Origin: Pseudomonadota bacterium
GTDB lineage: Bacteria; Pseudomonadota; Gammaproteobacteria; Burkholderiales; Burkholderiaceae_B
Assembly: GCA_023425645.1 (NCBI GenBank)
Contig: JAFACG010000053.1
Span: forward strand, 1-33,548
Length of the DNA stretch: 33,548 nt
Reading direction: 5' to 3'
Shown here: positions 10,798 to 33,548 of the stretch, piece by piece
Layout of the letters: each line of letters begins with the position of its first letter
Numbering within the stretch: position 1 is the first letter of the stretch
Made by a program: the position numbers and the translations under genes
Notes under the pieces: model-generated
Databases searched by the model: none
What the model was told of the DNA's origin: nothing
The model's input: the letters and a program-made list of their open reading frames with translations, nothing else

Positions 10798-10813
10798 TGT
10801 TTCACGTGGAACA
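10798..10813 (+). promoter_or_regulatory. parS-like site (ParB-binding palindrome)
   Basis: TGTTTCACGTGGAACA matches the chromosomal parS consensus TGTTNCACGTGNAACA at every fixed base. It lies in an AT-rich intergenic stretch, past the 3' end of the leftward DUF4105 gene and about 20 kb from parA/parB. Confidence 0.85.
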
Positions 10814-11903: not shown

Positions 11904-11942
11904 CTGCGGGAGCAGGGCGGCGGCAGAAAAGCCCGCGCGCGG

Positions 11943-13022: not shown

Positions 13023-14390
13023 TCAGATGAATACGACGCGGTCGCGGCCTTCCTCCTTGGCCTGGTAAAGGGCGCGGTCCACACGGCGCAATGTACGCTC
13101 GTAGTCGGGGTGGCCGTCATACAACGCAATCCCCACGCTGGCCGTGATGCTCAGAGTCTGACTGTCCGACACGCGGAAAGTTTCCGCATGGATGCGCATG
13201 CGCAGGTTGCGCGCCGCGCGCAGGGCAGCGTCGGCATCCACATCCACCAGCAACACCAGAAATTCCTCGCCCCCCAATCTGAACACGTAATCGCCGGCAC
13301 GCGCGCTGTTGCTGAGCAATTCGGCAAACTGCTGCAGGACCCGATCGCCCGCGTCATGACCATAGGTGTCGTTGACGCTCTTGAAATAGTCGATGTCCAC
13401 GCCCAGCAGGGCGAAACGCGAGCCGCGCTGCTGGGCATAGCTGACCTCCCGGCTCAGGACCACAGGCAGGTACTTGCGGCTGAGCAGGCGGGTCAGCACG
13501 TCGCGTCCCGATTCCAGTTCATTCTGCTGCTCGAACAAGCGCTCCAGGTGCAGGCCGATGGCGCGCGTCTTGTCCCGCAAAGCATGCAGATGGCGGATCT
13601 GGCCGGCTTGGTCATCCCGGTCGAATCCGGGCACCAGCTCCGCGTCGATCAGGCGCATCAGCTCCAGGATCTCGCGACTTTCCACCGTGCCCTGGAAGGC
13701 ATGCGAGCCTTTGTGCTTGAACCAGACGCCGAAATCAGAATCGCCGATGCGCGGCAGGGGCGCCTGGCTGCCGTTGACGGCCATGGCGAACATGAACTGG
13801 TTCTCCCAGTCCAGCAGGGCGGCGCGCTGGCGACCGCGCTCGGCGGCGGCGTTCTGCACAATGGCGAACAGCCGGTAGGACTCCTCGGCCCGGGACTTGC
13901 GCTCGCGGGAATCGGCATAGGCGTGGCTCATGATTTCCATGGCCAGGTCGATGAAATTCTGCACATAGCTGTAACAGTCCCAGGCCTGCTCACGGCTGAT
14001 CTCCGTAGACTCGCACAGGTAGCGGGCATAGCGGCCCTTGAGCAGGCGCGCGCCACGCAGCACCAGATGCACCGGCACGCCGACCCGCGCATGCACCTCG
14101 CCGACCTGGTTCTGCAGCTTGACCTGTTCCTGCATGTCGCTGTCCACATCCACGGAGAACAGCTGGACCAGCCAGTTGCGCAGCGAACGGTGCAGGCGGG
14201 TCTGCACCTGCTCATGGGACAGATAGACCTGCGCGGCCGGATGGGTCAGCATATGCGTATAAAAATGCGTCGCCAGCTCATCCTGATGATCCAGGGTGAT
14301 GGCCAGCACCTGGGCACGCACGGCCAGCGGCACCGGCTGCAGCAAGGCATGCCAGTCCTGGGCGGATTCTTCGATATTCGGTTGCGGCAT
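13023..14390 (-). CDS. Globin-coupled diguanylate cyclase (DosC/BpeGReg type)
   Basis: About 455 residues. An N-terminal globin sensor domain carries the proximal heme histidine in GEVHARVGVP, at residue 100 when ATG 14390 is used (DosC of E. coli has it at 98, in the same AEVHARIGIP context). A helical middle domain (about 160-290) resembles DosC closely (for example DFGVWFKHKG). The GGDEF domain has the active-site motif GGEEF, and an RxxD inhibitory site (RAGD) lies five residues before it. By family knowledge oxygen binding to the heme controls synthesis of cyclic-di-GMP and so biofilm and motility. An in-frame ATG at 14456 would add 22 residues. No phosphodiesterase partner is adjacent. 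Confidence 0.95.
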   Translation of the reverse strand: MPQPNIEESAQDWHALLQPVPLAVRAQVLAITLDHQDELATHFYTHMLTHPAAQVYLSHEQVQTRLHRSLRNWLVQLFSVDVDSDMQEQVKLQNQVGEVHARVGVPVHLVLRGARLLKGRYARYLCESTEISREQAWDCYSYVQNFIDLAMEIMSHAYADSRERKSRAEESYRLFAIVQNAAAERGRQRAALLDWENQFMFAMAVNGSQAPLPRIGDSDFGVWFKHKGSHAFQGTVESREILELMRLIDAELVPGFDRDDQAGQIRHLHALRDKTRAIGLHLERLFEQQNELESGRDVLTRLLSRKYLPVVLSREVSYAQQRGSRFALLGVDIDYFKSVNDTYGHDAGDRVLQQFAELLSNSARAGDYVFRLGGEEFLVLLVDVDADAALRAARNLRMRIHAETFRVSDSQTLSITASVGIALYDGHPDYERTLRRVDRALYQAKEEGRDRVVFI

Positions 14391-16377: not shown

Positions 16378-18093
16378 ATGGCATTCATTTCTCGCAAGGC
16401 ATACACCGAAATCTACGGTCCCACCGTCGTCAACGGCGTGGGCGACCGGGTCCGCCTGGCCGACACCCAGCTGCTGGCCGAAGTCGAGCGCGACTTCACC
16501 ATCTTCGGCGAAGAGGTCAAATTCGGCGGCGGCAAGGTCATCCGCGACGGCATGGGCCAGAGCCAGCGCATGAGCGCCGACTGCGCCGACACCGTCATCA
16601 CCAATGCGCTGATCATCGACGCCGTCACCGGCATCGTGAAGGCCGACATCGGCATCAAGAACGGCTTCATATCGGGGATAGGCAAGGCCGGCAACCCCGA
16701 CATCCAGCCCGGCGTGAACATCATCATCGGCGCCTCCACGGAAATCATCGCCGGCGAAGGCATGATCGTGACCGCCGGCGCCATCGACACGCACATCCAC
16801 TACATCTGCCCTCAGCAGGTCGGGGAGGCCCTGTCCACCGGCACCACCACGCTGATCGGCGGCGGCACGGGCCCGGCCACCGGCACGCTGGCCACCACCA
16901 GCACGTCCGGCCCCTGGCACCTGGCCGCCATGATGCAGGCCACCGACGCCTTCCCCATCAACATAGGCCTGTTCGGCAAGGGCAGCTCCAGCTCGTACGA
17001 CGCCGTCATCGAGCAGGTGCGCGCGGGCGCCATGGGCCTGAAGATCCACGAAGACTGGGCCAGCACGCCGGCCGCCATCGACAACTGCCTGACGGTGGCC
17101 GACGACACCGACGTGCAGGTCGCCATCCACAGCGACACCCTGAACGAATCCGGTTTCGTGGAGGACACCTTCGGCGCCTTCAAGGGCCGCACCATCCACT
17201 CCTTCCACACCGAAGGGGCAGGGGGCGGGCACGCGCCCGACATCATCCGCGCGGCCGGCATGGCCAATGTACTGCCGGCCTCCACCAACCCCACCATGCC
17301 GTTCACGCGCAACACCATCGACGAGCACCTGGACATGGTGATGGTCTGCCACCACCTGGACCCCTCCATCGCCGAGGACCTGGCCTTTGCCGAAAGCCGC
17401 ATCCGCAAGGAAACCATCGCGGCCGAGGACGTGCTGCACGACCTGGGCGCCTTCTCGGTCATGAGCTCGGACTCGCAGGCCATGGGCCGCGTGGGCGAAG
17501 TGGTGATGCGCACCTGGCAGACGGCCGACAAGATGAAGCTGCAGCGCGGCGCGCTGGAAGGCGACAGCGCGCGCTCGGACAACGAACGCATCAAGCGCTA
17601 CATCGCCAAATACACCATCAACCCGGCCCTGGCCCATGGCGTAGGCCACCTGATCGGCTCGATCGAAGTGGGCAAGCTGGCCGACATCGTGCTCTGGAAG
17701 CCCGCTTTCTTCGGCGTGAAGGTCAATATGGTGCTCAAGAGCGGCATGGCCGTGGCCGCCTCCATGGGTGATCCGGGCGCCTCCATCTCCACTCCGCAAC
17801 CCGTGCACATCCGCCCGATGTGGGGCGCCCACGGCAAGGCGCTGCGCACCTCCGTGCTCTTCGTCTCCCAGGCCGGCATGGACAATCCCGCCCTGCACGC
17901 TCTAGGATTGAACAAGCGCCTGGAGGCCGTCGTGGGCTGCCGCAACATCAGCAAGCACCAGATGGTGCGCAACAGCTGGCTGCCCCACATCACGGTGGAT
18001 CCCCAGACCTACCAGGTATACGCCGACGGCCATCTGCTGCATTGCGATCCCGTCGACATCCTGCCCATGGCACAACGTTATTTCCTGTTCTAG
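16378..18093 (+). CDS. ureC: Urease alpha subunit (catalytic)
   Basis: 571 residues. All nickel and catalytic residues are present. They are H139 and H141 (in [11 protein letters not shown]), K222 (in LKIHEDW, the lysine carbamylated to bridge the two nickel ions), H251, H277, H325 of the mobile flap (VMVCHHLD) and D365 (in [12 protein letters not shown]). These are five residues on from the Klebsiella numbering. The enzyme hydrolyses urea to ammonia and carbamate. By sequence it should be active once loaded with nickel by UreD, E, F and G, all encoded around it. A small deviation is HEDWAST, where HEDWGAT or HEDWGTT is more common. Confidence 0.98.
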
Positions 18094-20407: not shown

Positions 20408-21657
20408 ATGACAGAAGCCCGACTGGGGACCATACCCCTTGCCAGTGCCGACTCCGCGCCAGCGACCCGCGCACGCTGCCCCAAGCTCAGCAATGAAGAC
20501 CTGCTACCAGTCGAAAAGCAGAGCTGGACCGCCTACAACCTGTTCGCCATGTGGATGTCCAACGTCCACAGCGTCGCGGGCTACGTCTTTGCCGCCAGCC
20601 TGTTCACGCTGGGCATACCCGGGTGACAGGTCCTGACAGCCTTGCTGCTGGGCATCCTGCTGACCAACTACTTCGTCAACAAGGTCGGCCAGATGGGGCA
20701 GCGCTACCGCATCCCCTTTGCCCTGTCCTGCCGCCCCAGCTTCGGCGTGCTGGGGGCGAACATCCCCGGCCTGATCAAGGCCTTCATCGCCACCTGCTGG
20801 TACGGCATCCAGACCTGGGTGGCCTCCACCGCCATCATGGTCAGCGCCTTGCGCTTCTTTCCGGAACTCACCCCTGGACCCAGGTCTCGTTCCTGGGGTT
20901 GTCCTACCTGGGCTGGGCGGCCTTCCTCATCCTGTGGCTGTTCCAGCTGATCGTGTTCTACCGCGGCCTGGAGGCCGTGCGCAAGTTCTGCGACTGGGCC
21001 GGTCCCGGAGTCTACGTGGTGATGTTCCTGCTGGCCGGATGGATCGTTTACAAGGCCGGCGGCATGAGCGAAATCAGCTTCACGCTCAGCTCGGTCAAAC
21101 TGCAGGGCGCGCCCGCCTGGGGCATGTTCATCACCGCCGTCGCGCTGGTGGTGGCCTACTTTGCGGGCACCACCCTGAACTTCGCCGATTTCGCCCGTCT
21201 GATCGAATCGCCCGCCAGCATGAAGCGCGGCAACTTCCTGGGCCTGCCCGTCAACCTGATGACCTTTGCGCTGATCACCGTCATCACCACCTCCGGCGGC
21301 CTGCAGGTCTTCGGCGAACTGATCACAGACCCGGTCGAGCTGGTGGCGCGCATCGACAATCACACCGCCGCCTTGCTGGGCGTGCTGACATTCTCCATCT
21401 CGACGGTTGCCACCAACATCGTGGCCAACTTCATCTCGGCCTCGTTCGATCTGGCCAACATGATCCCCAGCAGGATCAACTTCCGCCGCGGCGGCGTGAT
21501 CGCCGCCATTCTGTCCATCGTGGTGATGCCCTGGAACCTGTACAACAATCCGGTGATGATCCAGTACACCCTGGGCGCGCTGGCAGGCTTTACCATCTAC
21601 CCCATGCTGGCGCGTCATCCGCGTCTGGGCCTGAACGCCCAGCAGAACCTGAGCTAG
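20408..21657 (+). pseudogene. NCS1-type nucleobase/hydantoin permease, decayed
   Basis: The translated pieces join into a permease of the NCS1 family (cytosine, uracil, allantoin and hydantoin transporters): NEDLLPVEKQSWTAYNLFAMW, VAGYVFAASLFTLGIPG, then NYFVNKVGQMGQRYRIPF and later AGPGVYVVMFLLAGW, NFADFARL and MPWNLYNNP. Three lesions break it. An in-frame TGA (20624-20626) stands where the family has a tryptophan (GIPGW-QVLTALL). A frameshift near 20865-20890 moves the reading from the first to a second frame. The C-terminus is short and joins NPVMIQYTLGALAG to an unrelated-looking end, consistent with an internal deletion. A good GGGAGGAG ribosome site precedes ATG 20408. It most likely supplied substrate to the deaminase downstream. 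Confidence 0.88.
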
Positions 21658-21783
21658 CCGGCCTGCAGCCGCGCGGGAGCAGATCCTGCCTCTTTGCCGG
21701 GGCAGGACGCCCGCCATGCTTTCAGGACCTGCCGCAGGCAGGCCCGCTTCACCAACCTCGCTGTCCCATGTCTTGAGAACGCC

Positions 21784-22224
21784 ATGAAACATCACTACCT
21801 GCAACTGGCCCTGGATCAAGCCCGTCTGTCCGTCGCCCAGGGCGGCATGCCGTTCGGCTCCGTCCTGGTAGTCGACGGCGAAGTCGTCGCCCAAGCGCAT
21901 AATCGCCAGCTCCAGGATCAGAACTATTTTTCCCATGCCGAAACCAACTGCCTGCAGCAGTACCTGAAAAAGCCTTTCAGCTCCGACCAGGACGTGTTGC
22001 TGGTGGCCACGGAGGCCCCATGCCCCATGTGCGCCGGGGCCGCCCAGATCGCCGGCGTACGACGGCTTCTGGTGGGCGAGGCCCATCACTACCAGGGCGC
22101 CCTGGACTGGCTGCGCCAGGCAGGCGTGCACGTAGAGGTCCTTGCTGACCAGGCCTGCATCGATCTGGTCAGCAAGTTCCGCAATCAGTACCCGGACCGC
22201 TGGAACGCCTTCAGCGCCGGTTGA
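21784..22224 (+). CDS. Cytosine deaminase, yeast FCY1-like (CDA fold)
   Basis: 146 residues of the zinc-dependent cytidine/deoxycytidylate deaminase superfamily. The zinc ligands are H51 with the catalytic E53 (SHAETNC) and C80 and C83 (APCPMCAGA). The C-terminal part (VGEAHHYQGALDWLRQAGVHVEVL ... CIDLVSKFRNQYPDRW) follows the yeast cytosine deaminase layout rather than the tRNA adenosine deaminase TadA. The expected reaction is cytosine to uracil plus ammonia, but related members act on guanine, creatinine or other rings. It lies just after a broken NCS1 permease gene and behind the urease cluster, a nitrogen-release setting. A terminator follows. Confidence 0.87.
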   Translation: MKHHYLQLALDQARLSVAQGGMPFGSVLVVDGEVVAQAHNRQLQDQNYFSHAETNCLQQYLKKPFSSDQDVLLVATEAPCPMCAGAAQIAGVRRLLVGEAHHYQGALDWLRQAGVHVEVLADQACIDLVSKFRNQYPDRWNAFSAG

Positions 22225-22839: not shown

Positions 22840-23420
22840 AAATGAAAAACAGAAATCGGTATATGAAATACAAAATGGCAGTTTTGTATTTTGAGCTGAA
22901 GCCCGAATATTTTTATGACAATCGAAATAATATAAAGAAATTAAACTTATCCACAAGAAAGGATAAGCTGGAAATCCACAATTTTATTAACAGCTTCATT
23001 TATTCCATGGATGGAATTATTGATAGAGAGGAATAAACAGATTGGATAAAAAAGTGGATAAGATGTGGAAAGTATAACAGCACTCGCGCTCGACCAAAAC
23101 AAAGAATCCACGGCGCGTAAAAATCAATCCGAAAATCGATCACACCCTCTGCAAGCCTTGAACGGCGGGCGAAGCAAGGGCGCCACAGCCCAGCTCTTCG
23201 GCCTGAACGCCGCTGTGGATAAGCTCTGGGAGACCGACATGTGAACGCAATGTGGATGAAACGGGGATAAGTGCGCTATCTTGACATGGACAGGATTTTG
23301 TCCAGTTTCCTTCCACTGGCTCCCGTAGGCTGATGCACATGACGGCAGCGCAGGCAATGGATTGAAAACAAAGACGAAATCAGGGATATGCCACTTATCC
23401 ACAGACACCCATTATCCAAT
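22840..23420. other. Candidate replication-origin region A (AT-rich, DnaA boxes)
   Basis: About 200 bases (22840-23040) are strongly AT-rich and are followed by further DnaA-type 9-mers. Perfect TTATCCACA boxes are at 22947-22955 (+), 23214-23222 (-) and 23395-23403 (+). One-mismatch boxes are at 23053-23061 (AGTGGATAA) and 23251-23259 (TGTGGATGA), and a weaker AAATCCACA is at 22972-22980. AT-rich DNA next to clustered DnaA boxes is the usual oriC layout, and the base-skew change seen by sampling lies close by. No convincing gene was found between 22268 and 23464. A 64-codon frame in the AT-rich part has the composition expected of chance. Confidence 0.6.
23213..23259 (+). repeat. DnaA-box repeat module, copy 1
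   Basis: The module is CTGTGGATAAGCTCT, about 15 variable bases, TGTGAAC, a short spacer and TGTGGAT. It holds one perfect and one degenerate DnaA box 37 bases apart in the same direction. A related copy lies at 24560-24605 on the other side of the phosphoesterase gene. Confidence 0.8.
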
Positions 23421-23464
23421 ACTAATTTTATATATAGTTATTGTTAAGCAAAGAACACGTGCCC

Positions 23465-24523
23465 ATGAGCTCCTTTCTTGTACAGGCTCTGCCTGACGGT
23501 CCCTTGGACATCATCGGCGACTTGCATGGAGAACTCCAGGCATTGCATCGCTTACTAAAAAATCTTGGATATCAAGAAGATGGAACACATACAGACCAAC
23601 GCACCTTGGTCTTTGTCGGCGACTTCTGCGATCGAGGCCCAGATAGTCCAGGCACGATCGAATATGTCAAGTCATTGATAAATAAAGGAAAAGCATTTGG
23701 CATACTAGGCAATCACGAGATCAATCTGCTCATCGACGATGCCAAGGACGGATCAGGCTGGTTTTTTGACAGCCGACTCGAATCAGATCTGCCGTTCTAC
23801 GCGCCTTTTCAACGGGTCCAGCCTGAAAAAAAAGAAAATATCCGCCAATTTTTAGCCTCGCTCCCTCTGGTTTTGGAAAGAAAAGACCTGCGAGTCGTGC
23901 ATGCAGCGTGGAATAAAGAAGCAATTGACGCGATTCGGGATGTGAAAACAGAAAATATGCTGGATTTTTTCGTGGAATGCGACGAAAAAGCAAACGAATT
24001 TGCCAAAAAATCAGGAATATTAGAAAAATATCTGGAAGCAAAGCAAAAATGGAAGGAAAAAATAGAAGACCCTGCTGCGATCATTCCCATGCTTCAGGAA
24101 TATGCAGATTTTGACCTGGTTCAGAACCGTTTCAATCCCATTCGATTGCTGACTTCTGGAACGGAAGCGGCTGCTGAAACACCGTTTTTTGCGGGAAACC
24201 GTTGGCGATTTTCCGACCGCACCCCCTGGTGGGATCACTATGACGAGCCGGTTCCTGTGGTTTTCGGCCATTACTGGCGCCAGCTGGATCCGTCCCAGAC
24301 CCGTAAGCTTTCAAGATATTCCTTATTATTCAATGGGATAGATCCATTCCACTGGCACGGTAAATGTCACAACGCATTCTGCATCGACTTTTCAGTAGGC
24401 GCGCGTTGGCGTGAACGCCGGCAGGACCAGAACCCTGAGGCGACACGTTTTCACTTGGCCGCCTTGCGTTGGCCAGAGCAGATCCTGGTCACCGACACCG
24501 GATTTCAGCAGAAAATCAGCTGA
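23465..24523 (+). CDS. Metallophosphoesterase (calcineurin-like, PrpE/ApaH-like)
   Basis: 352 residues. The metal-binding motifs GDLHGE (18-23), GDFCDRGPDS and GNHE are intact, followed by HAAW and GHYWR histidine motifs. This is the order of a two-metal phosphoesterase, probably acting on phosphoproteins or nucleotides; the exact substrate is unknown. The insert between GNHE and the later motifs (rich in Lys and Glu) is longer than in simple ApaH proteins. Its base composition is clearly more AT-rich than the urease or parAB genes. I favour ATG 23465; GTG 23459 and TTG 23441 are in frame. It is flanked by two related DnaA-box repeats and has no operon partner. Confidence 0.9.
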   Translation: MSSFLVQALPDGPLDIIGDLHGELQALHRLLKNLGYQEDGTHTDQRTLVFVGDFCDRGPDSPGTIEYVKSLINKGKAFGILGNHEINLLIDDAKDGSGWFFDSRLESDLPFYAPFQRVQPEKKENIRQFLASLPLVLERKDLRVVHAAWNKEAIDAIRDVKTENMLDFFVECDEKANEFAKKSGILEKYLEAKQKWKEKIEDPAAIIPMLQEYADFDLVQNRFNPIRLLTSGTEAAAETPFFAGNRWRFSDRTPWWDHYDEPVPVVFGHYWRQLDPSQTRKLSRYSLLFNGIDPFHWHGKCHNAFCIDFSVGARWRERRQDQNPEATRFHLAALRWPEQILVTDTGFQQKIS

Positions 24524-25712
24524 TTTCGATCCTGTGCTCGGTTGTTACAATTTTCTTTTCTGTGGATAAGCTCTAGAGAGCTCGATGTGAACAGTATGTG
24601 GATTGGCTTGGCACAAGTAGCCTTTTCTTCTGGACGACAAAAAGTTGTGCCTATTCAGTCCACCAGCAATCCTCGGAGCTATCCCCTTCAAGACAGGCCC
24701 CCAAGAGATTGTTTTCATTGATGAAATACTGCTTGTTCGACTTATCAACAGGTTCTCATTCAATAATCTAAATAAAAAATTTAAGTGCTTGTTATAGAAG
24801 AGAAGTTTGCTCTTCCGGCCTGATTTGCTGCGCTCTTTGCATGCCGAATTTTCTGGACTAAGATGCACAGCATCGCAAGAGCGCAAGATTGTCCCGCCAC
24901 CGACAGCCATGCGGTTTTTGCATACAGCGAATTGGGATCCAACAGGCGACGAAAATACTTTTTCAGCACCGTTTTTCCGCACTATCACTGCTGAGTGGAA
25001 GGGACGGACTGTCTTGTCGACTCTCAATGCTGGCAAAGGTATTACATGAAAAAAACTCAAACTGGGCTTTGCTGCGATAAAGCCGGTTCGGGATTGCGGG
25101 CGCAGGGAAGCGCTTGACCTTGCTCCTGACCGGTTTTGCTTGATTTCACCGGCAGCGGCAAGGCTGACCCGAATGCGTATAGTCAACTTGTCCACAAAAA
25201 AGGGGTAAATGGCGACATGAACCCGGCGACAGTTTTTCATTCAAGGAGTTTGTCAGGGAGGCTGTTTTTTTACACAGTTCCATGCTGTGGCACAAACTCG
25301 TCTTTTGCATATAATTAGTTGTTTTTTTGGAATTATTTTTTGTTTTTTAGATTTCTGCCTTTGTTGACGGCCCTTGCTCCGGCTTTAGGTGGCGATTCGG
25401 AACGCAAGGCCTGAAAATTGCTCTTTGATGCAAAAACAGGCATTCACTGGGCAAAAAATCAGGGTTGCCCCCAAAGTTATCAACAGGCTGGCCAATAGAA
25501 GGCCATGTGTCGTGTTTGATGAATTCGGCTGCTCGTGCTGCAATACAAGGAGTTTGTTGAGCGAGGTTGACGGTTTGTTTGGCGGATCAGTGCTTGTGTC
25601 ATGCGCAGGCTCATTGAGCCGCATGGCAAGCCCAAGAAGCGGTTAGGGCAGGATCGGGCTTGTCCACAATTTCGGGGTGGACGGTTCTACCATGTCGAGA
25701 GGAACAAAAGCC
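24524..25712. other. Gene-free interval of about 1.2 kb with scattered DnaA-like boxes
   Basis: No convincing gene is seen on either strand; the longest frames have no recognisable domain and poor codon bias. The interval has a perfect DnaA box at 24561-24569, weaker boxes at 24597-24605, TTATCAACA at 24742-24750 and 25487-25495, and TTGTCCACA at 25188-25196 and 25660-25668. Several T runs (25264-25270, 25321-25327) occur. The sign of the G/C skew changes in this stretch by hand sampling. It may be part of the origin or degraded sequence. Confidence 0.5.
24560..24605 (+). repeat. DnaA-box repeat module, copy 2
   Basis: CTGTGGATAAGCTCT, a variable segment, TGTGAAC and TGTGGAT, the same order as at 23213-23259, with boxes 36 bases apart. 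The first 15 bases are identical in the two copies. Confidence 0.8.
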
Positions 25713-25736
25713 AAAAAAAACCGCCTTGCGGCGGTT
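25713..25736 (-). terminator. Terminator after the aminotransferase gene
   Basis: AACCGCC, TTGC, GGCGGTT. Read on the minus strand the stem is followed by eight Ts. It lies about 140 bases past the aminotransferase stop. Confidence 0.85.
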
Positions 25737-25874
25737 AGTTGAGTTTTCAAGGTGAAATTCCTGGCTTGGCAATCGGGACCTTCTGGAGCCGATACAAGAA
25801 TATTCTCTGCATGGCATCCTTTCGTTCTTGCTCGGGAACGCCGTCGACGACCAGGCCGCTGCGCAAGGGCAAGC

Positions 25875-27044
25875 TCAGACTTGTTGCAAACGGCGAATGG
25901 CTTCCTCCAGGGTTGCGGCTTGTTTGGCGAAGCAGAAGCGCACCAGGCGGTGGTTGGCTTGAGCGGCGTCAGGATTCTGATAGAACGCAGAGACTGGGAT
26001 GACGCCGACGCCGTGGTTTCGTGTCAGCCATTTGGAGAATTCCAGTTCCGATTGATCCGAGATGCCATCATAGCTTGCCAACAGAAAGAAAGTGCCTTCG
26101 CTGTGCAGAGGCGTGAAGCGGGTCTGTTGCAAACCCTGATAAAGCTGATCACGCTTGGCCTGATAGAAAGCGGGCAGGGACTGCCAGGTGGAGGGATCCT
26201 GCATGTAAGTGGCCAGGCCTGCCTGCAAGGGGGTCGGCACCGTAAACACCATGTATTGGTGAACCTTGCGGATTTCGGTCGTCAGTGCAGCTGGAGCGCA
26301 GCAATACCCGACTTTCCAGCCCGTGGCGTGAAAGGTCTTGCCGAACGAAGATACGATGATGGCGCGTTCGGCAAGGGCTGGTCTAGTGGCCAGGCTCAGG
26401 TGCTGTTGCTGATCGAACGTCAGGTGTTCGTAGACTTCGTCGGACAGGATCAGCAGAGGATGTCTGGCTACGATCCGTTCCAATGCATCCAGATCCTGAG
26501 GACGCAGATTGGTGCAGGTGGGGTTGTGCGGGAAGTTGACCACCAGCATCCGCGTCTTGCTGGTGATGGCTTTTTCCACGCGCTCCCAGTCGACGCGATA
26601 GTAGGGATTGTCAGGCGTAGGGGCCGTCATCGGTACAGGCACAGGCTTGCCGCCCGCCAGCTCTATGGCGGGAATATAGAGGTCATAGAACGGCTCGATC
26701 AGCACGACCTCATCACCAGCATGCACAAAGGCCAGAAAGCTGGCCATCAAAGCTTCGCTGGCTCCGCTGGTGACCGTGATTTCCATATCGCTGTCATACC
26801 GATGGCCGTAGCGGGCTGCCGTCTTGTCTGCAATGCGCGCCCGTAACGGCGTGTAGCCTGCCATGGCGGGATACTGGTTCAAGCCCTGCAGCATGGCTTG
26901 ATGGACGGCATTTATCAGTGCCGGATCCGGGTCGAAGTCCGGGAAACCCTGGCCGAGGTTGATGGCTTGATGTTCCACGGCCAGCTGGCTCATCACCGTG
27001 AAAATAGTGGTGCCCACCGAGGGCAGTTTAGAGTGGATCTGCAT
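25875..27044 (-). CDS. PLP aminotransferase, methionine aminotransferase (YbdL) type
   Basis: 389 residues of the class I/II aminotransferases. Visible features are INLGQGFPDFDPDP near the N-terminus, TSGASEALMASFLAF, NFPHNPTC, ILSDEVYEHLTFD (the aspartate that pairs with the PLP ring) and SSFGKTFHATGWKVGY with the cofactor lysine. The N-terminal and GK-T-x-x-x-TGWK patterns fit the YbdL/kynurenine-aminotransferase branch, which transaminates methionine and some aromatic amino acids. The length is normal. The ATG is well placed. It is transcribed leftward towards the gene-free origin-like interval. Confidence 0.9.
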   Translation of the reverse strand: MQIHSKLPSVGTTIFTVMSQLAVEHQAINLGQGFPDFDPDPALINAVHQAMLQGLNQYPAMAGYTPLRARIADKTAARYGHRYDSDMEITVTSGASEALMASFLAFVHAGDEVVLIEPFYDLYIPAIELAGGKPVPVPMTAPTPDNPYYRVDWERVEKAITSKTRMLVVNFPHNPTCTNLRPQDLDALERIVARHPLLILSDEVYEHLTFDQQQHLSLATRPALAERAIIVSSFGKTFHATGWKVGYCCAPAALTTEIRKVHQYMVFTVPTPLQAGLATYMQDPSTWQSLPAFYQAKRDQLYQGLQQTRFTPLHSEGTFFLLASYDGISDQSELEFSKWLTRNHGVGVIPVSAFYQNPDAAQANHRLVRFCFAKQAATLEEAIRRLQQV

Positions 27045-27462
27045 GAATGCGTGTAGCCCGAAAAAAGGGATAAGAACTGTTTTTACCCAAACAGGTGGAA
27101 TACGGGACGGCGGTTTTCTAAGTGTTTTTCCTGACGAAAAAATACCACACTATGCTGAATTTTCAATTGATTGTGGAATAAGCACTGAGTATGCTTTCTG
27201 AGATCAAGAGGCATGACCTGTAAGCTCAGTGCTTGGTACTTTTTCGGTAAGTTCACTTGCTGTTCTGTATATTCTGAGTCAACACGGCACGGTTTCCTTG
27301 GGTGAAGAAATTCGGCCTTGTCGGCCTGGCTTTCATCACCGTGATGTAAAGTCGCCTTCGGCGCTGCATCGATCTTGCCTTGCCTGACCTTGCCGCCAAC
27401 GGCGAAGTTTGCGCGAAGGCGCGTAGTCAATTTTTTTAGTTTTCTCAGGATTCAGTCAGATC
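27045..27462 (+). promoter_or_regulatory. Upstream region / 5' leader of the cold-shock gene
   Basis: No gene is supported here. A pair of complementary segments, CGCCTTCGGCGC (27353-27364) and GCGCGAAGGCG (27411-27421), would fold the end of the leader into a long stem, followed by a T run and the csp start. Long structured leaders are known to act as thermosensors in cold-shock genes. The promoter was not located with confidence. Confidence 0.4.
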
Positions 27463-27669
27463 ATGGTTCAAACTGGCAAAGTCAAATGGTTCAACGCTGA
27501 AAAGGGATTTGGCTTCATTACGCCTGACTCCGGCTCCGCTGATGTGTTCGCCCACTTCTCCGCTATCGAAGGACGCGGTTTCCGGTCCCTGAACGAAGGG
27601 CAAGCCGTCGAGTTCGAAGTCAAGGAAGGCCCCAAGGGCCTGCAGGCAGCGGGCATCCGGCCTCTGTAA
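27463..27669 (+). CDS. Cold-shock protein (CspA family)
   Basis: 68 residues, the normal length of a single cold-shock domain. The RNA-binding motifs RNP1 (KGFGFI, 14-19) and RNP2 (DVFAHF, 27-32) are intact, with [15 protein letters not shown] at the N-terminus. It is expected to act as an RNA chaperone in the cytoplasm. It is followed by a small hairpin and a strong terminator, so it stands alone. Bacteria of this group carry several such genes and which paralogue this is cannot be told. Confidence 0.96.
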
Positions 27670-27704
27670 GTCAGGCGGGTTCGCCAGCGCGAACCCACTT
27701 TGCG

Positions 27705-27730
27705 AAAAGCCGGCTAAGCCGGCTTTTTTT
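27705..27730 (+). terminator. Terminator after the cold-shock gene
   Basis: AAAAGCCGGC, TAA, GCCGGCTTTT continuing in Ts. A second hairpin, GGGTTCGC/GCGAACCC, lies just before it. Confidence 0.93.
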
Positions 27731-28117
27731 CATGCCCGCGTATTTCACTCCTATACGTCATGCCTGTATGGGCATAGGCTTTTCCACCGTACTTGTTTGG
27801 TCTGCCCATGCGGCGAATGTTGGTGTCCAGGAGTCGGGGCCGATAGCTCAGAGGGCCTTCCAGCAGCTGTTATCCACAATTTTGCCTCCTGGCAGAGCGC
27901 CTTGCCGGGAAGTTGTCTTACATTGAGGTGCGGAACGACGCTGTACATGTATTTTGTCGGCGCGCCCGCTATTTTTATGGGATTGGGCTCTAGGAGCGGT
28001 CCAGGACCCAAGCCGATGTGTCTTTTAAGAGCTCGGGAACATACTGTGTCGGCGCCCGTCTGAATATTCTTATTCTCCACAAAGTTATCCACAGGCCGCG
28101 TTGCAGGCTGGATGTTT

Positions 28118-28133
28118 TGTTCCACGTGGAACA
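28118..28133 (+). promoter_or_regulatory. parS site
   Basis: TGTTCCACGTGGAACA, a perfect 16-base palindrome and a full match to the parS consensus. It is 25 bases from a DnaA box and exactly 32 bases (about three helical turns) from the next parS. Confidence 0.95.
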
Positions 28134-28149
28134 AATTGTGAGCAGAGAC

Positions 28150-28165
28150 TGTTCCACGTGGAACA
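28150..28165 (+). promoter_or_regulatory. parS site overlapping a probable -35 region
   Basis: TGTTCCACGTGGAACA, a perfect palindrome. Its last six bases occupy the place of the -35 element for the TATAAT at 28183-28188. Confidence 0.95.
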
Positions 28166-28188
28166 GAAGAGTTTGGTGGTCGTATAAT
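28160..28188 (+). promoter_or_regulatory. Probable mnmG promoter
   Basis: A perfect TATAAT (28183-28188) is preceded at 17 bases by GGAACA (28160-28165), a poor -35 that lies within parS. Transcription would start near 28195, leaving a leader of about 265 bases before mnmG. Confidence 0.45.
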
Positions 28189-28459
28189 TGAGAGCGTACT
28201 GTTGCGCAAACCCTGCCGTAGACGGTGCGGCCAAGCAAGGCTATATGGATTCAGCAGTGGGGACGCCGCCATATTGTGGTGGAAAGCGCCGGCTGGAATG
28301 CCGGGACTCTTTATCGCGCGTCTTTGCCTGTGCTTGTTGTGACTGGTAGTTCCGGACGGGGCCGGACTGACGCGGCCCTGAAAGCGCCTCTGCCTTGCAG
28401 CAAAGCTGTTCCAGCTCCAGAACTGGCGGCCTTCATTTTTACTTTATTGCTGGTTAGAC

Positions 28460-30376
28460 ATGATTTATCCCGAAGAGTTTGACGTTATCGTCATCGGCGG
28501 CGGACATGCTGGTACCGAAGCAGCGTTAGCGGCTGCTCGAACCGGAGTGTCAACCTTGCTGCTTACCCATAACATGGACACCCTTGGGCAAATGTCCTGC
28601 AACCCGTCGATTGGCGGTATTGGCAAAGGACATCTGGTCAAGGAAGTGGATGCGCTGGGCGGGGCCATGGCCCTGGCCACTGACGAGGCGGGCATCCAGT
28701 TTCGTACCCTGAATAGTTCAAAAGGGCCTGCGGTGCGCGCCACCAGGGCCCAGGCCGACCGTTCCTTGTATCGTAAGGCCATACGACATCGCCTGCAGAA
28801 TCAAGCCAATCTGATGGTTTTCCAGCAGTCGGTGGAAGATCTGATTCTGGAAGGGGAGAAGGTCGTTGGCGCCGTCACCAAGATAGGGCTGGAGTTCCGC
28901 GCCAAGTCCGTGGTGCTGACGGCGGGGACTTTTCTGAATGGCTTGGTCCATGTGGGTTTGAATAACTATTCTGCTGGTCGAGCAGGGGATCCGCCTTCCA
29001 TCAGTCTGGCGCACCGCTTGCGAGAATTGAAGCTGCCGCAAGGCCGCCTGAAGACAGGCACGCCTCCGCGGATCGACGCCAATACGATCGATTTCTCTCG
29101 CCTGGAAGTCCAGCCGGGCGATACGGATCCGGTGCCCGTATTCTCGTATATGGGCAATGCCTCCATGCACCCTAGGCAGATGCCTTGCTGGATCACTCAT
29201 ACCAACGAACGCACTCACGAAATCATTCGCTCGGGTCTGGACCGCTCGCCCATGTACAGCGAGCAAGGCACTATCGAAGGCATAGGGCCGCGTTACTGTC
29301 CGTCCATCGAAGACAAGATCCATCGTTTTGCGGATAAGTCCAGTCACCAGGTTTTTCTTGAGCCTGAAGGCTTGAGCACCACGGAAATCTATCCCAACGG
29401 CGTTTCTACAAGCCTACCGTTCGATATACAGCTGGCCATGGTCCGCAGCCTGCCCGGTCTGGAGAACGCACGCATCATGCGCCCGGGCTATGCCATCGAA
29501 TATGACTATTTCGACCCGCGCGCCCTGCATCCGACATTGGAGACCAGGCAGATCCACGGCCTGTTCTTTGCAGGGCAGATCAACGGTACGACTGGCTACG
29601 AGGAGGCTGCCGCCCAAGGGCTGTTGGCCGGCGCCAATGCGGCTTTGCTGGCGCAAGGCAAGGAGCAGTGGTATCCGCGCCGCAACGAGGCTTATCTGGG
29701 CGTGCTGGTGGATGACCTGATCACGCGCGGGGTGACCGAGCCCTATCGCATGTTCACTTCCAGGGCGGAATATCGTCTGAGCCTGCGCGAAGACAATGCC
29801 GACCAGCGTCTGACGGAAATCGGCCGGGGGCTGGGCCTGGTGGATGATGCCCGCTGGGATCATTTCAACCGCAAACGGGATGCTGTTGCACGTGAAATCG
29901 AGCGTCTGAAGACGACCTGGGTCAATCCCCGCATCCTGCCGGCCGAGCAGGCCCAGGCCTTGCTGGGCAAAGCCATCGAGCGGGAGTATTCCTTTTATGA
30001 CTTGCTCAAGCGGCCTGAAGTCCATTATGGAAATCTGATGGCCGTCCAGGACGAGCAGGGCCAGACGATAGCCGGGCCGGGACTGCAAGACCCCGTCCAT
30101 GTGGAGCAGGTGGAGATCCAGGTGAAGTATGCCGGCTACGTGGCTCGCCAGCAGGACGAAGTAGAGCGGCAAGCCGCCCTGGAAGAGCAACGCATTCCCG
30201 AGGACCTGGACTATGACGATATCAAGGGTCTTTCCATTGAAGTGCGCCAGCGCTTGAAGGCGTCCCGTCCCGCCACCATCGGGCAGGCGGGCCGGGTGCA
30301 GGGCGTGACTCCGGCAGCCGTGTCCCTGTTGCTGGTTTACTTGAAACGCAAGCAGAAGAACCGAAACGCGGCATGA
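28460..30376 (+). CDS. mnmG: tRNA uridine 5-carboxymethylaminomethyl modification enzyme MnmG (GidA)
   Basis: 638 residues, the usual length. The FAD-binding fingerprint GGGHAGTE (13-20), [29 protein letters not shown] and [16 protein letters not shown] are intact, and the C-terminal helical domain ([24 protein letters not shown]) is complete. With MnmE it modifies the wobble uridine of several tRNAs. No mnmE is in the window. Its stop overlaps the rsmG start by four bases (ATGA). Position next to the origin with rsmG, parA and parB is a conserved arrangement. Confidence 0.98.
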
Positions 30377-31041
30377 GTGCAGACTTCAACCCCCGTTTGA
30401 TTCAGGCCATGAAGAACCTGGGCCTGGAGGCCGATCCGGATACGGTTCGCCAATTGCTGGCATACATACAGCAACTGCAACGTTGGAATAGAACCTACAA
30501 CCTGACCGCATTGCGTGATCCGGATCAAATGCTGGTGCAGCATATATTTGATAGCCTGTCCGTGGTGCGTCCTTTCCAGGAACATCTTGCCATTGACGCG
30601 ACAGTCGGCGAGTCCGTGCGTATCGTCGACGTAGGATCTGGAGCCGGCCTTCCAGGCGTGGTGCTGGCCGCGTCTTGTTCCACGTGGAACATTACTTGTA
30701 TCGACGCCGTCGAGAAGAAGATGGCGTTTGTCCGCCAGATGGTGGGTGCACTGGCTTTGCCCAATTTGCGGGCCCTGCATGTTCGCGTAGAGCAGCAGCT
30801 TCCCCTGGAGGCGGATATTGTGGTTTCCCGAGCCTTTTCTTCCTTGCTTGATTTTGTTAATTTGGCGGGCAGGCATGTCCGGGAGGGCGGCCGCATCGCG
30901 GCCATGAAGGGCAGGGTGCCCGAAGAGGAAATAGCGGCGCTGCAGGACCAGAGCGCCTGGAAGGTCGAGCGAATTGAACCATTAACCGTACCGGAGCTAG
31001 AAGCACAGCGTTGCCTAGTGTGGTTGGTGCAGCAAGGATAA
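30373..31041 (+). CDS. rsmG: 16S rRNA (guanine-N7) methyltransferase RsmG (GidB)
   Basis: 222 residues. The SAM-binding motif is [12 protein letters not shown] (83-94), preceded by [23 protein letters not shown], the family N-terminus. It methylates G527 of 16S rRNA. It overlaps mnmG by four bases and is followed by parA after two bases. A parS palindrome lies inside the gene and encodes SCSTWN, so the protein sequence at that point (about residues 101-106) may be shaped by the site. Confidence 0.96.
30676..30691 (+). promoter_or_regulatory. parS site inside rsmG
   Basis: TGTTCCACGTGGAACA, a perfect palindrome within coding sequence, about 350 bases before parA. Confidence 0.95.
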
Positions 31042-31043
31042 TC

Positions 31044-31859
31044 ATGAGTAAGAATGACGATAAATCTTCGGGCGCCTACATTTTTTGTATCGCCAACCAG
31101 AAGGGCGGGGTAGGCAAGACGACCACGGCCATCAATCTGGCGGCGGCCCTGGCCTTGCTGAAGAAAAAGGTTTTGCTGATCGACCTGGACCCCCAGGGCA
31201 ACGCCACCATGGGCAGCGGCATTGATAAAAATACCCTGTCCGGCAATCTGTATCAGGTATTGATCGGCCAGGAGACCATTTCGAACGTGAAAGTACGTTC
31301 GGAAACGGGTGGTTACGACGTGTTACCTTCCAACCGGGAGTTATCCGGCGCCGAGATCGACCTGATCCAGATGGAAGAGCGCGAACAGCAGCTCAAGCAA
31401 GCGCTGGCGCAGGTCGCGGACGACTATGACTTCGTGCTGATCGATTGCCCTCCCACCTTGTCCTTGCTGACGCTCAACGGCCTGGCCAGCGCGCACGGGG
31501 TCATCATCCCCATGCAGTGCGAGTATTTCGCACTGGAAGGGCTCTCGGACCTGGTCAACACCGTCAAGCGCGTCTATCGCAACATCAATTCGGACCTGCA
31601 GCTCATCGGGCTGCTGCGCGTCATGTTCGATAGTCGTGTAACCTTGCAGCAGCAGGTGTCCGGCCAGATCGAGACGCATTTCGGCGACAAGGTGTTCAAG
31701 ACGGTCATCCCGCGCAATGTGCGCCTGGCCGAAGCTCCCAGCCACGGCATGCCCGGCATCGTCTACGACAAGAATTCGCGCGGCGCCAAGGCATACCTGG
31801 ACTTCGGCAAGGAGCTGGTCAAGCGGCTCAAGAAAGAATCTCGCACCGACAAGGCATAA
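31044..31859 (+). CDS. parA: Chromosome partition ATPase ParA (Soj)
   Basis: 271 residues. The deviant Walker A motif is KGGVGKTT (20-27), followed by LLIDLDPQGNATMG and DFVLIDCPPTLSLLTLNGL (Walker B). These mark a chromosomal ParA/Soj. It forms a gradient on the nucleoid and moves ParB-parS complexes. The first ten residues lack the DNA-binding extension of plasmid type Ia ParA. The ATG at 31044 follows AAGGATAATC. parB begins 29 bases after its stop. Confidence 0.97.
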   Translation: MSKNDDKSSGAYIFCIANQKGGVGKTTTAINLAAALALLKKKVLLIDLDPQGNATMGSGIDKNTLSGNLYQVLIGQETISNVKVRSETGGYDVLPSNRELSGAEIDLIQMEEREQQLKQALAQVADDYDFVLIDCPPTLSLLTLNGLASAHGVIIPMQCEYFALEGLSDLVNTVKRVYRNINSDLQLIGLLRVMFDSRVTLQQQVSGQIETHFGDKVFKTVIPRNVRLAEAPSHGMPGIVYDKNSRGAKAYLDFGKELVKRLKKESRTDKA

Positions 31860-31888
31860 CGCACACAAGAATCAATAGGAACGTAAGC

Positions 31889-32827
31889 ATGGCTACTCGA
31901 AAACCCAAAGGTCTAGGTCGCGGACTGGACGCGCTGCTTGGCGCGGATGCCGGAGCGATCGCAACGATTGGGAAGACGGCGGCTGCCCCCGAGAAAGACG
32001 GCCTGCCCTCGACCTTGCCGGTCAAGCTGCTCAAGGCCGGCGTCTACCAGCCGCGCACGCGCATGGACGAGGGCGCCTTGAACGAACTGGCCGAGTCCAT
32101 CCGCGCCCAGGGCGTGATGCAGCCCATCCTGGTGCGGCCCCTTAGCGGCAAGGAGAAGGGCAAGTACGAAATCATTGCCGGCGAACGGCGTTTCCGCGCT
32201 TCCCAGATCGCCGGTCTGACCGAGGTGCCGGTCCTGGTGCGCGAAGTGGGCGACGAGAACGCGGCCATCATGGCGCTGATCGAGAACATCCAGCGTGAAG
32301 ATCTGAATCCGCTCGAAGAAGCGCAGGGCGTCAAGCGCCTGCTGGACGAGTTCGGCCTGACTCACGAACAGGCCGCCCAGGCCATCGGCCGCTCGCGCTC
32401 GGCAACCAGCAACCTGCTGCGCCTGATCAACCTGGCCGAACCCGTGCAGATCATGCTGCTGGCCGGCGACATAGACATGGGCCATGCGCGCGCACTGCTG
32501 GCCGTGGACGCGGCCCGCCAGATCATGCTGGCCAACGAAGTCATCGCGCGCCGCCTGTCCGTGCGCGAAACCGAGAAGCTGGTCGCCAAGGCCTTGCACG
32601 AAGACGACGCGCCCGCCAGCAAGCAGGCCGCCCGCAAGGCCGGCGCCAATGGCGATGTGCAGCGTTTCGAGAAGATCCTGTCGGATCACCTGGGCACCAA
32701 GGTCACGCTCAAGGTCGGTGCCAAGGACAAGGGGCAGCTGCAGATTGCGTTCCATGGATGGGAGCATCTGAACACCTTGCTGGAAAAGCAGGGCTTGTCG
32801 GCCTTGCTGCAGCAGCAGGACGACTGA
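31889..32827 (+). CDS. parB: Chromosome partition protein ParB (Spo0J), CTP-dependent clamp
   Basis: 312 residues. The ParA-interacting N-terminus (KPKGLGRGLDALLG), the CTP-binding boxes with GERRFR (98-103) and ENIQREDLNPLEEA, the helix-turn-helix (about 157-180, GLTHEQAAQAIGRSRSATSNLLRL) and the C-terminal dimer domain are all present. It loads at parS sites and slides as a clamp; matching parS sites are in the window. AGGAACG precedes the ATG. Confidence 0.98.
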   Translation: MATRKPKGLGRGLDALLGADAGAIATIGKTAAAPEKDGLPSTLPVKLLKAGVYQPRTRMDEGALNELAESIRAQGVMQPILVRPLSGKEKGKYEIIAGERRFRASQIAGLTEVPVLVREVGDENAAIMALIENIQREDLNPLEEAQGVKRLLDEFGLTHEQAAQAIGRSRSATSNLLRLINLAEPVQIMLLAGDIDMGHARALLAVDAARQIMLANEVIARRLSVRETEKLVAKALHEDDAPASKQAARKAGANGDVQRFEKILSDHLGTKVTLKVGAKDKGQLQIAFHGWEHLNTLLEKQGLSALLQQQDD

Positions 32828-32906
32828 GCGCTCGGCTGCGCGCCGGCCGCAGGCCTGCGCGTCCAAGAGCTGGAGCTCTTCACTTGGACATGTTTTGCAG
32901 CATCCC

Positions 32907-32933
32907 GCCGGCCTGTCAGGCCGGCTTTTTTTT
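32907..32933 (+). terminator. Terminator after parB
   Basis: GCCGGCCT, GTC, AGGCCGGC followed by eight Ts. It ends the mnmG-rsmG-parA-parB unit. Confidence 0.95.
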
Positions 32934-32972
32934 CGGAAAACGAGGAATTATTCAATTTTTCCCGCAAAAGGC

Positions 32973-33001
32973 TTGACGAAGCCCTAAAACATCTTCATAA
33001 T
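32973..33001 (+). promoter_or_regulatory. Promoter of the tRNA-tuf transcript
   Basis: TTGACG and CATAAT with an ideal 17-base spacer, just upstream of tRNA-Tyr. Such a strong arrangement fits a growth-rate-controlled tRNA/tuf operon. Confidence 0.85.
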
Positions 33002-33016
33002 TCGATTTTCGCTTCG

Positions 33017-33103
33017 GGTGGGATGTCCGAGTGGTTAAAGGAGGCAGACTGTAAATCTGTTGGCCCTGCGCCTACGCTGGTTCGAATCCAGCTCCCACCA
33101 CCA
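33017..33103 (+). tRNA. tRNA-Tyr (GTA)
   Basis: Acceptor GGTGGGA pairs with TCCCACC, then A and an encoded CCA. The anticodon GTA is at 33051-33053 in a CAGA/TCTG stem. The long variable arm expected of bacterial tRNA-Tyr is present, and GGTTCGAATCC forms the T arm. Confidence 0.97.
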
Positions 33104-33162
33104 GCACTATTCTAAAGCCAGCAAGCACAGCGGCTTTAGGACAGGGTGAAGAAAGTAATGCT

Positions 33163-33236
33163 GCGGGTGTAGCTCAATGGTAGAGCAGAAGCCTTCCAAG
33201 CTTAAGACGAGGGTTCGATCCCCTTCACCCGCTCCA
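33163..33236 (+). tRNA. tRNA-Gly (TCC)
   Basis: Acceptor GCGGGTG pairs with CACCCGC, then T and encoded CCA. The anticodon TCC is at 33195-33197. The D arm (AGCTCAATGGTAGAGC) and T arm (GGTTCGATCC) are standard. Confidence 0.97.
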
Positions 33237-33275
33237 GGTTTTTATGCCTTTAGCAGTTCTCGGCTAAATGCAAAT

Positions 33276-33350
<75 letters not shown>

Positions 33351-33394
33351 CATCTCTTTTATCTCATATCGCTTTATCCCTTCAGGAGTCTGCC

Positions 33395-33548
33395 ATGGCT
33401 AAAGGCAAGTTTGAACGGACTAAACCGCACGTCAACGTCGGTACCATCGGTCACGTTGACCACGGTAAAACCACGCTGACCGCTGCAATCTGCACGGTTC
33501 TGGCCAAGGAATTCGGCGGCGAAGCTCGCGACTACTCGCAGATCGACA
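33395..33548 (+). CDS. tuf: Elongation factor Tu, 5' part (runs off the window)
   Basis: The first 51 codons are visible: [19 protein letters not shown] followed by the P-loop HVDHGKTT and [14 protein letters not shown]. The protein delivers aminoacyl-tRNA to the ribosome. AGGAG lies nine bases before ATG. Placement after tRNA-Tyr, -Gly and -Thr is the usual tufB-type operon of proteobacteria. Confidence 0.98.

What the first reader, a model, noticed from the sequence alone, without database searches (positions are those of the whole stretch)
22840..25100. A chromosomal replication origin probably lies between the deaminase gene and the aminotransferase gene, not only beside mnmG
An AT-rich stretch (22840-23040) adjoins three perfect and several near-perfect DnaA boxes. 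In 60-base samples counted by hand, the + strand is C-rich to the left (G/C of 15/23 at 16921, 14/25 at 21241, 16/21 at 11941, 18/24 at 13201). It is near balance around 23581 and 24181, and G-rich to the right (19/10 at 25501, 22/12 at 25561, 24/12 at 26161, 23/15 at 29641). A skew reversal with DnaA boxes is the standard sign of oriC. The counts are samples, not a full calculation.
Basis: partly seen in the sequence, partly recalled or inferred. Interest (0 to 1): 0.75.

Follow-up and report, generated by a model that had tools for sequence, protein, structure and literature searches.

The report
Duplicated chromosomal replication origin in Alcaligenaceae
This stretch is very probably the place where the bacterium starts copying its chromosome; it is built like the E. 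coli origin but carries that origin unit twice, on either side of a gene, and several groups of relatives have kept two copies through species splits.

Summary
The window's cumulative GC-skew minimum is at 23,867, on a flat stretch from about 22.7 to 25.0 kb. Thirteen of the window's 15 DnaA boxes (up to one mismatch; 3.1 expected) lie in 22,947-28,093. No genome is held for the window, so the genome-wide minimum was tested in relatives. In sampled G002 the only minus-to-plus skew switch lies at this locus, about 52 kb from dnaA. G115 and G116 agree. G001 is mosaic.

The anatomy goes beyond the finding. Two copies of an E. coli-type module, two inverted DnaA boxes 181 bp apart followed by an AT-rich flank, stand in tandem (U 23,214-23,403; D 24,561-24,750) around a phosphoesterase gene. 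E. coli's R4-R1 spacing is 180 bp, with the same orientation towards mnmG. All 10 held Alcaligenes-genus genomes have both modules. 31 of 268 family genomes have two by a strict pattern; three of these have them 67-88 kb apart, each near a local skew minimum. Whether both copies fire is untested.

The parts
21694..22224 (+). deaminase gene (cytidine/tRNA-adenosine deaminase fold), left border
   Evidence: PF00383 E 9.7e-18; TadA model 46.9 bits, below its cut-off of 150
22840..23080 (.). AT-rich element with DnaA boxes 22947 (+, perfect) and 23053 (-, one mismatch); role unknown
   Evidence: 71.5% AT over 22840-23039; mean identity to four Alcaligenes-group relatives 0.58, box cores aligned
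23214..23403 (+). oriC module U: left box R4-like 23214-23222 (-, perfect), internal box 23251 (-, one mismatch), right box R1-like 23395-23403 (+, perfect)
   Evidence: U clade of window, G003, L001, L002 with support 98/90
23404..23453 (+). predicted DNA unwinding element of module U (GACACCCATTA then AT-rich, 74% AT; 4 trio-type triplets after a 15-base spacer)
   Evidence: identity 0.86 over 23404-23450 against 0.47 for 24830-25800
23465..24523 (+). calcineurin-like metallophosphoesterase gene between the two modules
   Evidence: PF00149 E 2e-12; 70, 69 and 75% aa identity in L001, L002, L192 at the same place
24561..24750 (+). oriC module D: left box 24561-24569 (-, perfect), right box 24742-24750 (+, TTATCAACA, one mismatch)
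   Evidence: D clade of window, G003, L001, L002 with support 100/99
24751..24800 (+). AT-rich flank of module D (76% AT), conserved but without GACACCC
   Evidence: identity 0.78 against 0.47 for 24830-25800
25433..25487 (.). short conserved block carrying TTATCAACA at 25477
   Evidence: 87-93% identity to L001, L002, L050
25875..27044 (-). methionine aminotransferase-type gene, right border
   Evidence: NF006569 573 bits, cut-off 420
27870..28093 (+). mnmG-proximal DnaA boxes 27870, 28073 (one mismatch), 28085, without module geometry
28118..28133 (.). parS-type palindrome TGTTCCACGTGGAACA
28150..28165 (.). parS-type palindrome
30676..30691 (.). parS-type palindrome inside rsmG
10798..10813 (.). 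parS-type palindrome, one mismatch, on the other side of the origin
28460..30376 (+). mnmG (gidA)
   Evidence: TIGR00136 913 bits
31011..31859 (+). parA
   Evidence: NF041546 E 2.9e-30, 105 bits, below its cut-off of 180
31889..32827 (+). parB
   Evidence: TIGR00180 187 bits, cut-off 58

Best explanation
The interval 22.84-25.1 kb contains the chromosomal replication origin of an Alcaligenes-like bacterium. It is an E. coli-type oriC module present twice in tandem. In each module DnaA would bind the two inverted high-affinity boxes 181 bp apart, fill weaker sites between them, and open the AT-rich flank beyond the right-hand box; helicase loading would start two forks, one leaving through mnmG. 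Module U, which keeps the perfect right-hand box and the GACACCCATTA junction, is most likely the main start site. Module D, whose right-hand box is TTATCAACA in the window and in nine of the ten genus genomes (TTATACACA in the tenth, G046/L003), is a retained but altered copy: an auxiliary or weaker origin, or a DnaA-binding control site. Shown: boxes, geometry, conservation, the skew switch in relatives, retention of both copies. Inferred: DnaA binding, unwinding, and which copy fires.
For: Window skew minimum and box cluster. G002: 20 sampled 20-kb blocks plus 120 kb contiguous give one minus-to-plus switch, with the contiguous minimum at 2,907,849 beside the modules (2,904,951-2,906,486) and not at dnaA (2,958,069). 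G115 and G116, 10 blocks each, are two-armed with the switch in the unsampled gap that holds the modules. E. coli K-12 oriC has the same inverted perfect boxes 180 bp apart, unwinding side towards mnmG. The module aligns in 24 copies from 16 sequences. It occurs in 158 of 268 family genomes (110 have none by the strict pattern), and the reversed control pattern gave 0 in every row. All 10 Alcaligenes-genus genomes have both modules (strict pattern: both in 8; G003 and G046 with one mismatch allowed). U and D copies form separate clades in window+G003+L001+L002 and in five other groups. Three perfect parS-type sites lie to the right and two weaker ones to the left.
Against: No genome of the window's own organism and no replication data. 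G001 (A. faecalis AU14) has four minus-to-plus switches in its samples, only one at this locus. In G001 and G002 the contiguous skew minimum lies about 1.4 kb outside module U, so skew does not tell U from D. Overall identity to E. coli oriC (0.47-0.57, four modules) is near that of shuffled pairs (mean 0.50, largest 0.61 of 200), so that kinship rests on geometry. The window's own U-D identity of 0.595 is below the largest of 200 shuffles (0.606). Both modules of L001 have only two trio-type triplets, below the published minimum of three. Copies of L003, in the same genus, do not all fall in the Alcaligenes clades: its U copy groups elsewhere (87/59). L011 (Pigmentiphaga humi), with a full 10-kb flank, has no such module.
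Confidence: 0.87

Rival explanations
1. Only module U is an origin. Module D is a decaying duplicate or a DnaA-titration or regulatory site of the datA, DARS or incompatibility kind (names recalled), which tunes initiation but never fires.
For: D has a mismatched right-hand box and lacks GACACCC in the five Alcaligenes-group D copies aligned (window, L001, L002, L050, L003), and likewise in G003; D's trio score in the window is marginal (3 triplets, spacer 1).
Against: D's left box region and AT-rich flank are conserved (0.82 and 0.78 against 0.47 for 24830-25800), so it is not simply decaying. In L007, L008, L009 and L163 both copies keep perfect boxes and the AT-rich flank.
Confidence: 0.5
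2. The origin is at dnaA or just before mnmG, and the boxes here serve transcription control.
For: dnaA has perfect boxes on both sides in G001 and G002; a perfect box lies within 1 kb upstream of mnmG in 12 of the 18 loci L001-L017 and L050.
Against: Skew does not switch at dnaA in G001 or G002 but 38-52 kb away at the modules; in the window the mnmG-side boxes lack the inverted 180-bp geometry.
Confidence: 0.05
3. U and D together form one bipartite origin of the B. subtilis or H. pylori kind, with the phosphoesterase gene as spacer; only U is unwound and D supplies extra DnaA boxes by looping. (This overlaps with the first rival: in both, D does not fire.)
For: Two box clusters split by a spacer gene within about 1.6 kb match the published description of bipartite origins (PMC4285127, passages).
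Against: That description gives only one half a DUE; here each half has both inverted boxes and an AT-rich flank. The spacer gene is not constant: L003 has twin modules with a 292-bp gap and no ORF of 90 aa or more, L007 and L009 have them about 440 bp apart, and G051, G011 and G232-G237 have other DNA between them.
Confidence: 0.35

Closest known systems
Escherichia coli oriC (NC_000913.3, fetched as L138)
   Same: Two perfect inverted DnaA boxes 180 bp apart, AT-rich flank beyond R1, R1 side facing mnmG
   Different: Single copy in the stretch read; 11 GATC sites against 0 in the window modules and 1 in each L001 module; 0.18 kb instead of 5.1 kb (U) from the right-hand box to mnmG; overall identity near background
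Bipartite origins (B. subtilis, H. pylori)
   Same: Two box clusters around a spacer gene
   Different: There the spacer is usually dnaA and one half alone has the DUE (PMC4285127, passages); here both halves are whole modules and dnaA is 38-52 kb away in G001 and G002
Cupriavidus metallidurans CH34 chromosome 1 origin region
   Same: Skew transition about 90 kb from dnaA, next to 213 nt with three perfect DnaA boxes (PMC2864759, passages)
   Different: One such short cluster at the transition in the passages read; not compared by sequence here
Predicted double origins in DoriC (Gao 2015, PMC4403523, whole text read)
   Same: More than one candidate origin on one chromosome
   Different: Those are unlike pairs (dnaA- with hemE- or parB-linked) or duplications that include dnaA; here the same module without dnaA is repeated and inherited in several lineages
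Kerstersia gyiorum SWMUKG01 predicted oriC (PMC6461280, passages)
   Same: Ori-Finder origin prediction in the same family
   Different: Coordinates only; no structure or duplication in the passages read

Membership tests
E. coli-type oriC | Two inverted high-affinity DnaA boxes about 180 bp apart | tested here: met
   181 bp in U (both perfect) and D (one mismatch); 180 bp in E. coli
E. coli-type oriC | AT-rich unwinding element next to the R1-type box | tested here: met
   74% and 76% AT in the 50 bases after the right-hand box; 0.6% and 0.5% of the window's 50-base stretches are as AT-rich. Unwinding itself not tested
E. coli-type oriC | Weak sites between R4 and R1, with opposite orientation in the two halves (recalled) | tested here: inconclusive
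   Conserved box-like words in both orientations in the alignment, read by eye
E. coli-type oriC | Dense GATC sites for Dam and SeqA control | tested here: not met
   0 in U, 0 in D, 11 in E. coli
Bacterial chromosomal oriC in general | Lies at the genome-wide GC-skew minimum | tested here: inconclusive
   Not testable in the window's genome; by samples met in G002, G115, G116; G001 mosaic
Basal unwinding system (box, spacer of at most 16, at least three DnaA-trios; PMC8287927) | At least three NTN triplets within 16 bases of the box | tested here: met
   U: 4 triplets, spacer 15; D: 3, spacer 1. Not met in L001 U or L001 D (2 each); the same rule is also met by some opposite flanks, so it is weak
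Bipartite origin | Two DnaA-box subregions split by a spacer gene, only one with a DUE | tested here: not met
   Spacer gene present, but both halves have an AT-rich flank
Chromosomal oriC in general | Autonomous replication or marker-frequency peak | not testable with these tools
   Needs an experiment or sequencing reads

The most novel reading that the evidence does not exclude
Alcaligenaceae chromosomes naturally carry two complete DnaA-dependent origins that can both fire.
Probability: 0.33. Interest if true: 0.85.

Novelty: new variant of a known kind. Interest (0 to 1): 0.58.

Why it matters
Gao (2015; [quoted passage not shown] A family in which the oriC module is duplicated and kept in several lineages gives natural material for that question, and suggests how an origin can move without a non-viable step. 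It also places the origin of Alcaligenes relatives 38-52 kb from dnaA, which matters for genome numbering and gene-dosage studies.

Tried and rejected
Rejected: origin at dnaA (no skew switch there in G001 or G002); mnmG-proximal boxes as the core (no module geometry). Overall sequence similarity as proof of kinship to E. coli oriC failed, being near shuffle level. Skew could not tell U from D. Promoter and terminator scans of 22.2-25.9 kb: promoters at chance (4 found, 4.0 expected), terminators 8 found against 5.1 expected. The first metallophosphoesterase comparison used a wrong reading frame and was replaced; the same off-by-one start was used for that gene, so its third-position value is not used. 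The explanation of the G104-clade W-shaped skew by inversion of the whole a-b segment is weakened, because dnaA stands to mnmG there as in Alcaligenes; a smaller inversion is not excluded, and one gene (G104 228129-229719) has moved relative to G001. Tree rows dropped before counting: L193 and L164 (same genomes as L003 and L008) and two weak third pairs in L167 and L168; L050 was in the alignment but not in the tree. G044 and G165 were not fetched, being the genomes of L007 and L009 by identical module sequence. Of 23 genomes with two perfect pairs, orientation came from the AT-richer flank; ties or conflicts in L161 and L164 were settled by the left-box motif or by L008. Named loci without a module: L011 (full flank), L015 and L016 (contigs end within about 0.7 kb of mnmG). 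Six papers were opened: PMC4403523 (whole text), PMC8287927 (outline, one methods section, part 1 of 2 of the results), and passages of PMC6461280, PMC2864759, PMC4285127 and PMC7174414. All other papers were seen as search listings only, and the listings were capped.
Full report
What was checked. Cumulative GC skew in the window falls to a flat minimum between about 22.7 and 25.0 kb, lowest at 23,867, and rises to the right. DnaA boxes with at most one mismatch number 15 against 3.1 expected, and 0 of 100 shuffles reach that. The 22,840-23,039 stretch is among the most AT-rich 200-base stretches of the window. Third-position skew of single genes is noisy and does not by itself show the reversal (10 of 17 negative to the left, 3 of 6 positive to the right).

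What organism. mnmG is 92% identical to Alcaligenes faecalis AU14 and to two other Alcaligenes records. The window is 60.7% GC while the three Alcaligenes loci are 50-51%, so it is a relative and not that species. No genome is held for it.

Where the origin is in relatives. In G002 (genome of L002, Alcaligenes sp. SORT26), 20 sampled 20-kb blocks are positive from 1 to 0.86 Mb, negative from 1.05 to 2.72 Mb and positive from 3.10 Mb on. A contiguous 120 kb places the minimum at 2,907,849, next to the modules at 2,904,951-2,906,486, while dnaA is at 2,958,069. G115 and G116, 10 blocks each, show the same two-armed pattern, with the modules in the unsampled gap where the sign changes. G001 (genome of L001, A. 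faecalis AU14) also switches at its modules (minimum 2,805,258; modules from 2,806,706; dnaA at 2,767,101), but its 20 samples contain three further minus-to-plus changes, presumably rearrangements. Exact TTATCCACA occurs 24 times in each of G001 and G002, and 7 of those lie within 5 kb here (the backward-read control gave 12 and 10 in the whole genomes).

What the anatomy is. A perfect box on the minus strand and a perfect box on the plus strand, 181 bp apart, form module U (23,214 and 23,395). A second copy, module D (24,561 and 24,742), has one mismatch in the right-hand box. In the named Alcaligenaceae-type loci L001-L010, L012-L014, L017 and L050 the spacing is 178-181 bp; L011 has none, and L015 and L016 are too short to tell. 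The right-hand box is followed by exactly GACACCCATTA in 15 of 24 aligned copies, and then by an AT-rich stretch; elsewhere in the family the junction differs. E. coli K-12 has the same arrangement: R4 and R1 180 bp apart, R1 side facing mnmG. Overall identity to E. coli is about that of shuffled sequence, and Dam sites are absent (0 against 11), so the likeness is one of layout. The published trio criterion is met by U (4 triplets, spacer 15) and marginally by D (3 triplets), but by neither module of L001 (criterion in PMC8287927).

Two copies, kept. With a strict pattern, 158 of 268 genomes of the family have at least one inverted pair at this spacing, and the reversed control pattern has none. 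Thirty-one have two places: 23 with two perfect pairs and 8 Alcaligenes with U plus the D variant. Among the 10 genomes of the genus, the strict pattern finds both modules in 8, one in G003 and none in G046; allowing one mismatch finds both in those two. In G046 (L003's genome) the two modules start only 478 bp apart, without the phosphoesterase gene between them. In 20 of the 23 genomes with two perfect pairs the copies are 0.44-3.6 kb apart and in the same orientation. A tree of 79 rows puts U and D copies in separate supported clades for window, G003, L001 and L002 (98/90 and 100/99) and for five other groups (L007 with L009; G219 with G221; G232, G233, G234 and G237; G151-G153; G051 with G011), so in these groups both copies passed through speciation together. 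L003's D copy joins the Alcaligenes D clade (97/75) but its U copy does not join the U clade; deeper branches are not resolved. The phosphoesterase gene stands between the copies in the window, L001, L002, L008 (also read as L164), L162, L163, L165 and L192, in pieces in L160, and upstream of a single module in L004, L005, L006, L012, L014 and L017; 39 of the 54 sequences compared show neither it nor the deaminase in the stretch held. So the D position is the more widely shared one, yet in Alcaligenes it is U that keeps the canonical junction. I infer that the main role passed from D to U after duplication.

Constraint. Against four relatives (L001, L002, L050, G003) the AT-rich flanks of U and D are 0.86 and 0.78 identical to the window, the modules 0.64 and 0.66, the gene 0.70, and 24,830-25,800 to the right of D 0.47. 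Both copies are therefore kept, not decaying freely.

Surroundings. parS-type palindromes lie at 28,118, 28,150 and 30,676 (perfect), 10,798 (one mismatch) and 19,027 (three mismatches), against 0.06 expected; the consensus is recalled. mnmG, rsmG, parA and parB follow.

A wider lead. Three unnamed, largely collinear genomes of the family (G104, G042, G108) carry two perfect modules 67, 88 and 73 kb apart in opposite orientation, copy b beside the aminotransferase gene (and mnmG where that was read, G104 and G108), with dnaA between the copies. Of the other 7 genomes of that genus, one (G112) has one module and six have none even by a loose pattern. In all three, cumulative skew has a local minimum within 0.75-1.2 kb of copy a, a maximum between the copies, and the minimum of the stretch read within 1.6 kb of copy b; the G042 stretch ends about 1.3 kb past copy b. 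In a 10-kb bin just right of copy a, third-position skew is positive on ORFs of both strands: G104 +0.17 and +0.21 (220 kb bin), G042 +0.03 and +0.12 (90 kb bin), G108 +0.07 and +0.13 (170 kb bin); the bins that contain copy a itself in G104 and G108 are negative, and later bins are mixed. This is what two active origins would leave. Because the three genomes share one ancestry it counts as one event, and a local inversion is not excluded.

Novelty. Ten library searches (capped listings) listed no paper whose title or abstract start describes a duplicated E. coli-type oriC module in this family. Kerstersia has an Ori-Finder prediction (PMC6461280, passages), and C. metallidurans has a skew transition with DnaA boxes about 90 kb from dnaA (PMC2864759, passages). 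An origin far from dnaA is therefore not new; the kept duplication of the whole module is the new variant.

Noticed in passing
L195-L203 (G104:C14:160001-340000), L204-L210 (G042), L211-L219 (G108): Two oriC modules 67-88 kb apart in inverted orientation, each near a cumulative-skew minimum, with dnaA between them: candidate two-origin chromosome.
   Followed up: partly
L029 about 4662 and 5445; L052 about 4296 and 5538 (Herminiimonas): Twin box modules with 122-bp spacing that face each other as inverted copies, with trio-like AT-rich flanks pointing inwards.
   Followed up: partly
window 22840-23080: AT-rich element with two conserved DnaA boxes left of module U; not part of the module geometry, role unknown.
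   Followed up: partly
window 25433-25487: Short conserved block with TTATCAACA in otherwise poorly conserved DNA right of module D.
   Followed up: no
window 16539-16828 (-): Rfam match to the 5' ureB small RNA (RF02514, 102.9 bits), on the strand opposite to the ORF 16378-18093; the gene there was not identified.
   Followed up: no
window 1-22500 against 25800-33548: GC content drops from 63.6% left of the origin to 57.6% right of it; in L001 the compared parts are 54.4% and 53.1%.
   Followed up: no
L160 (G201), between its two modules: The phosphoesterase gene matches only in four separate pieces, so it looks broken, while both modules remain.
   Followed up: no
G001, whole chromosome: Sampled GC skew changes sign many times, unlike G002, G115 and G116, suggesting large inversions or a mis-join.
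   Followed up: no
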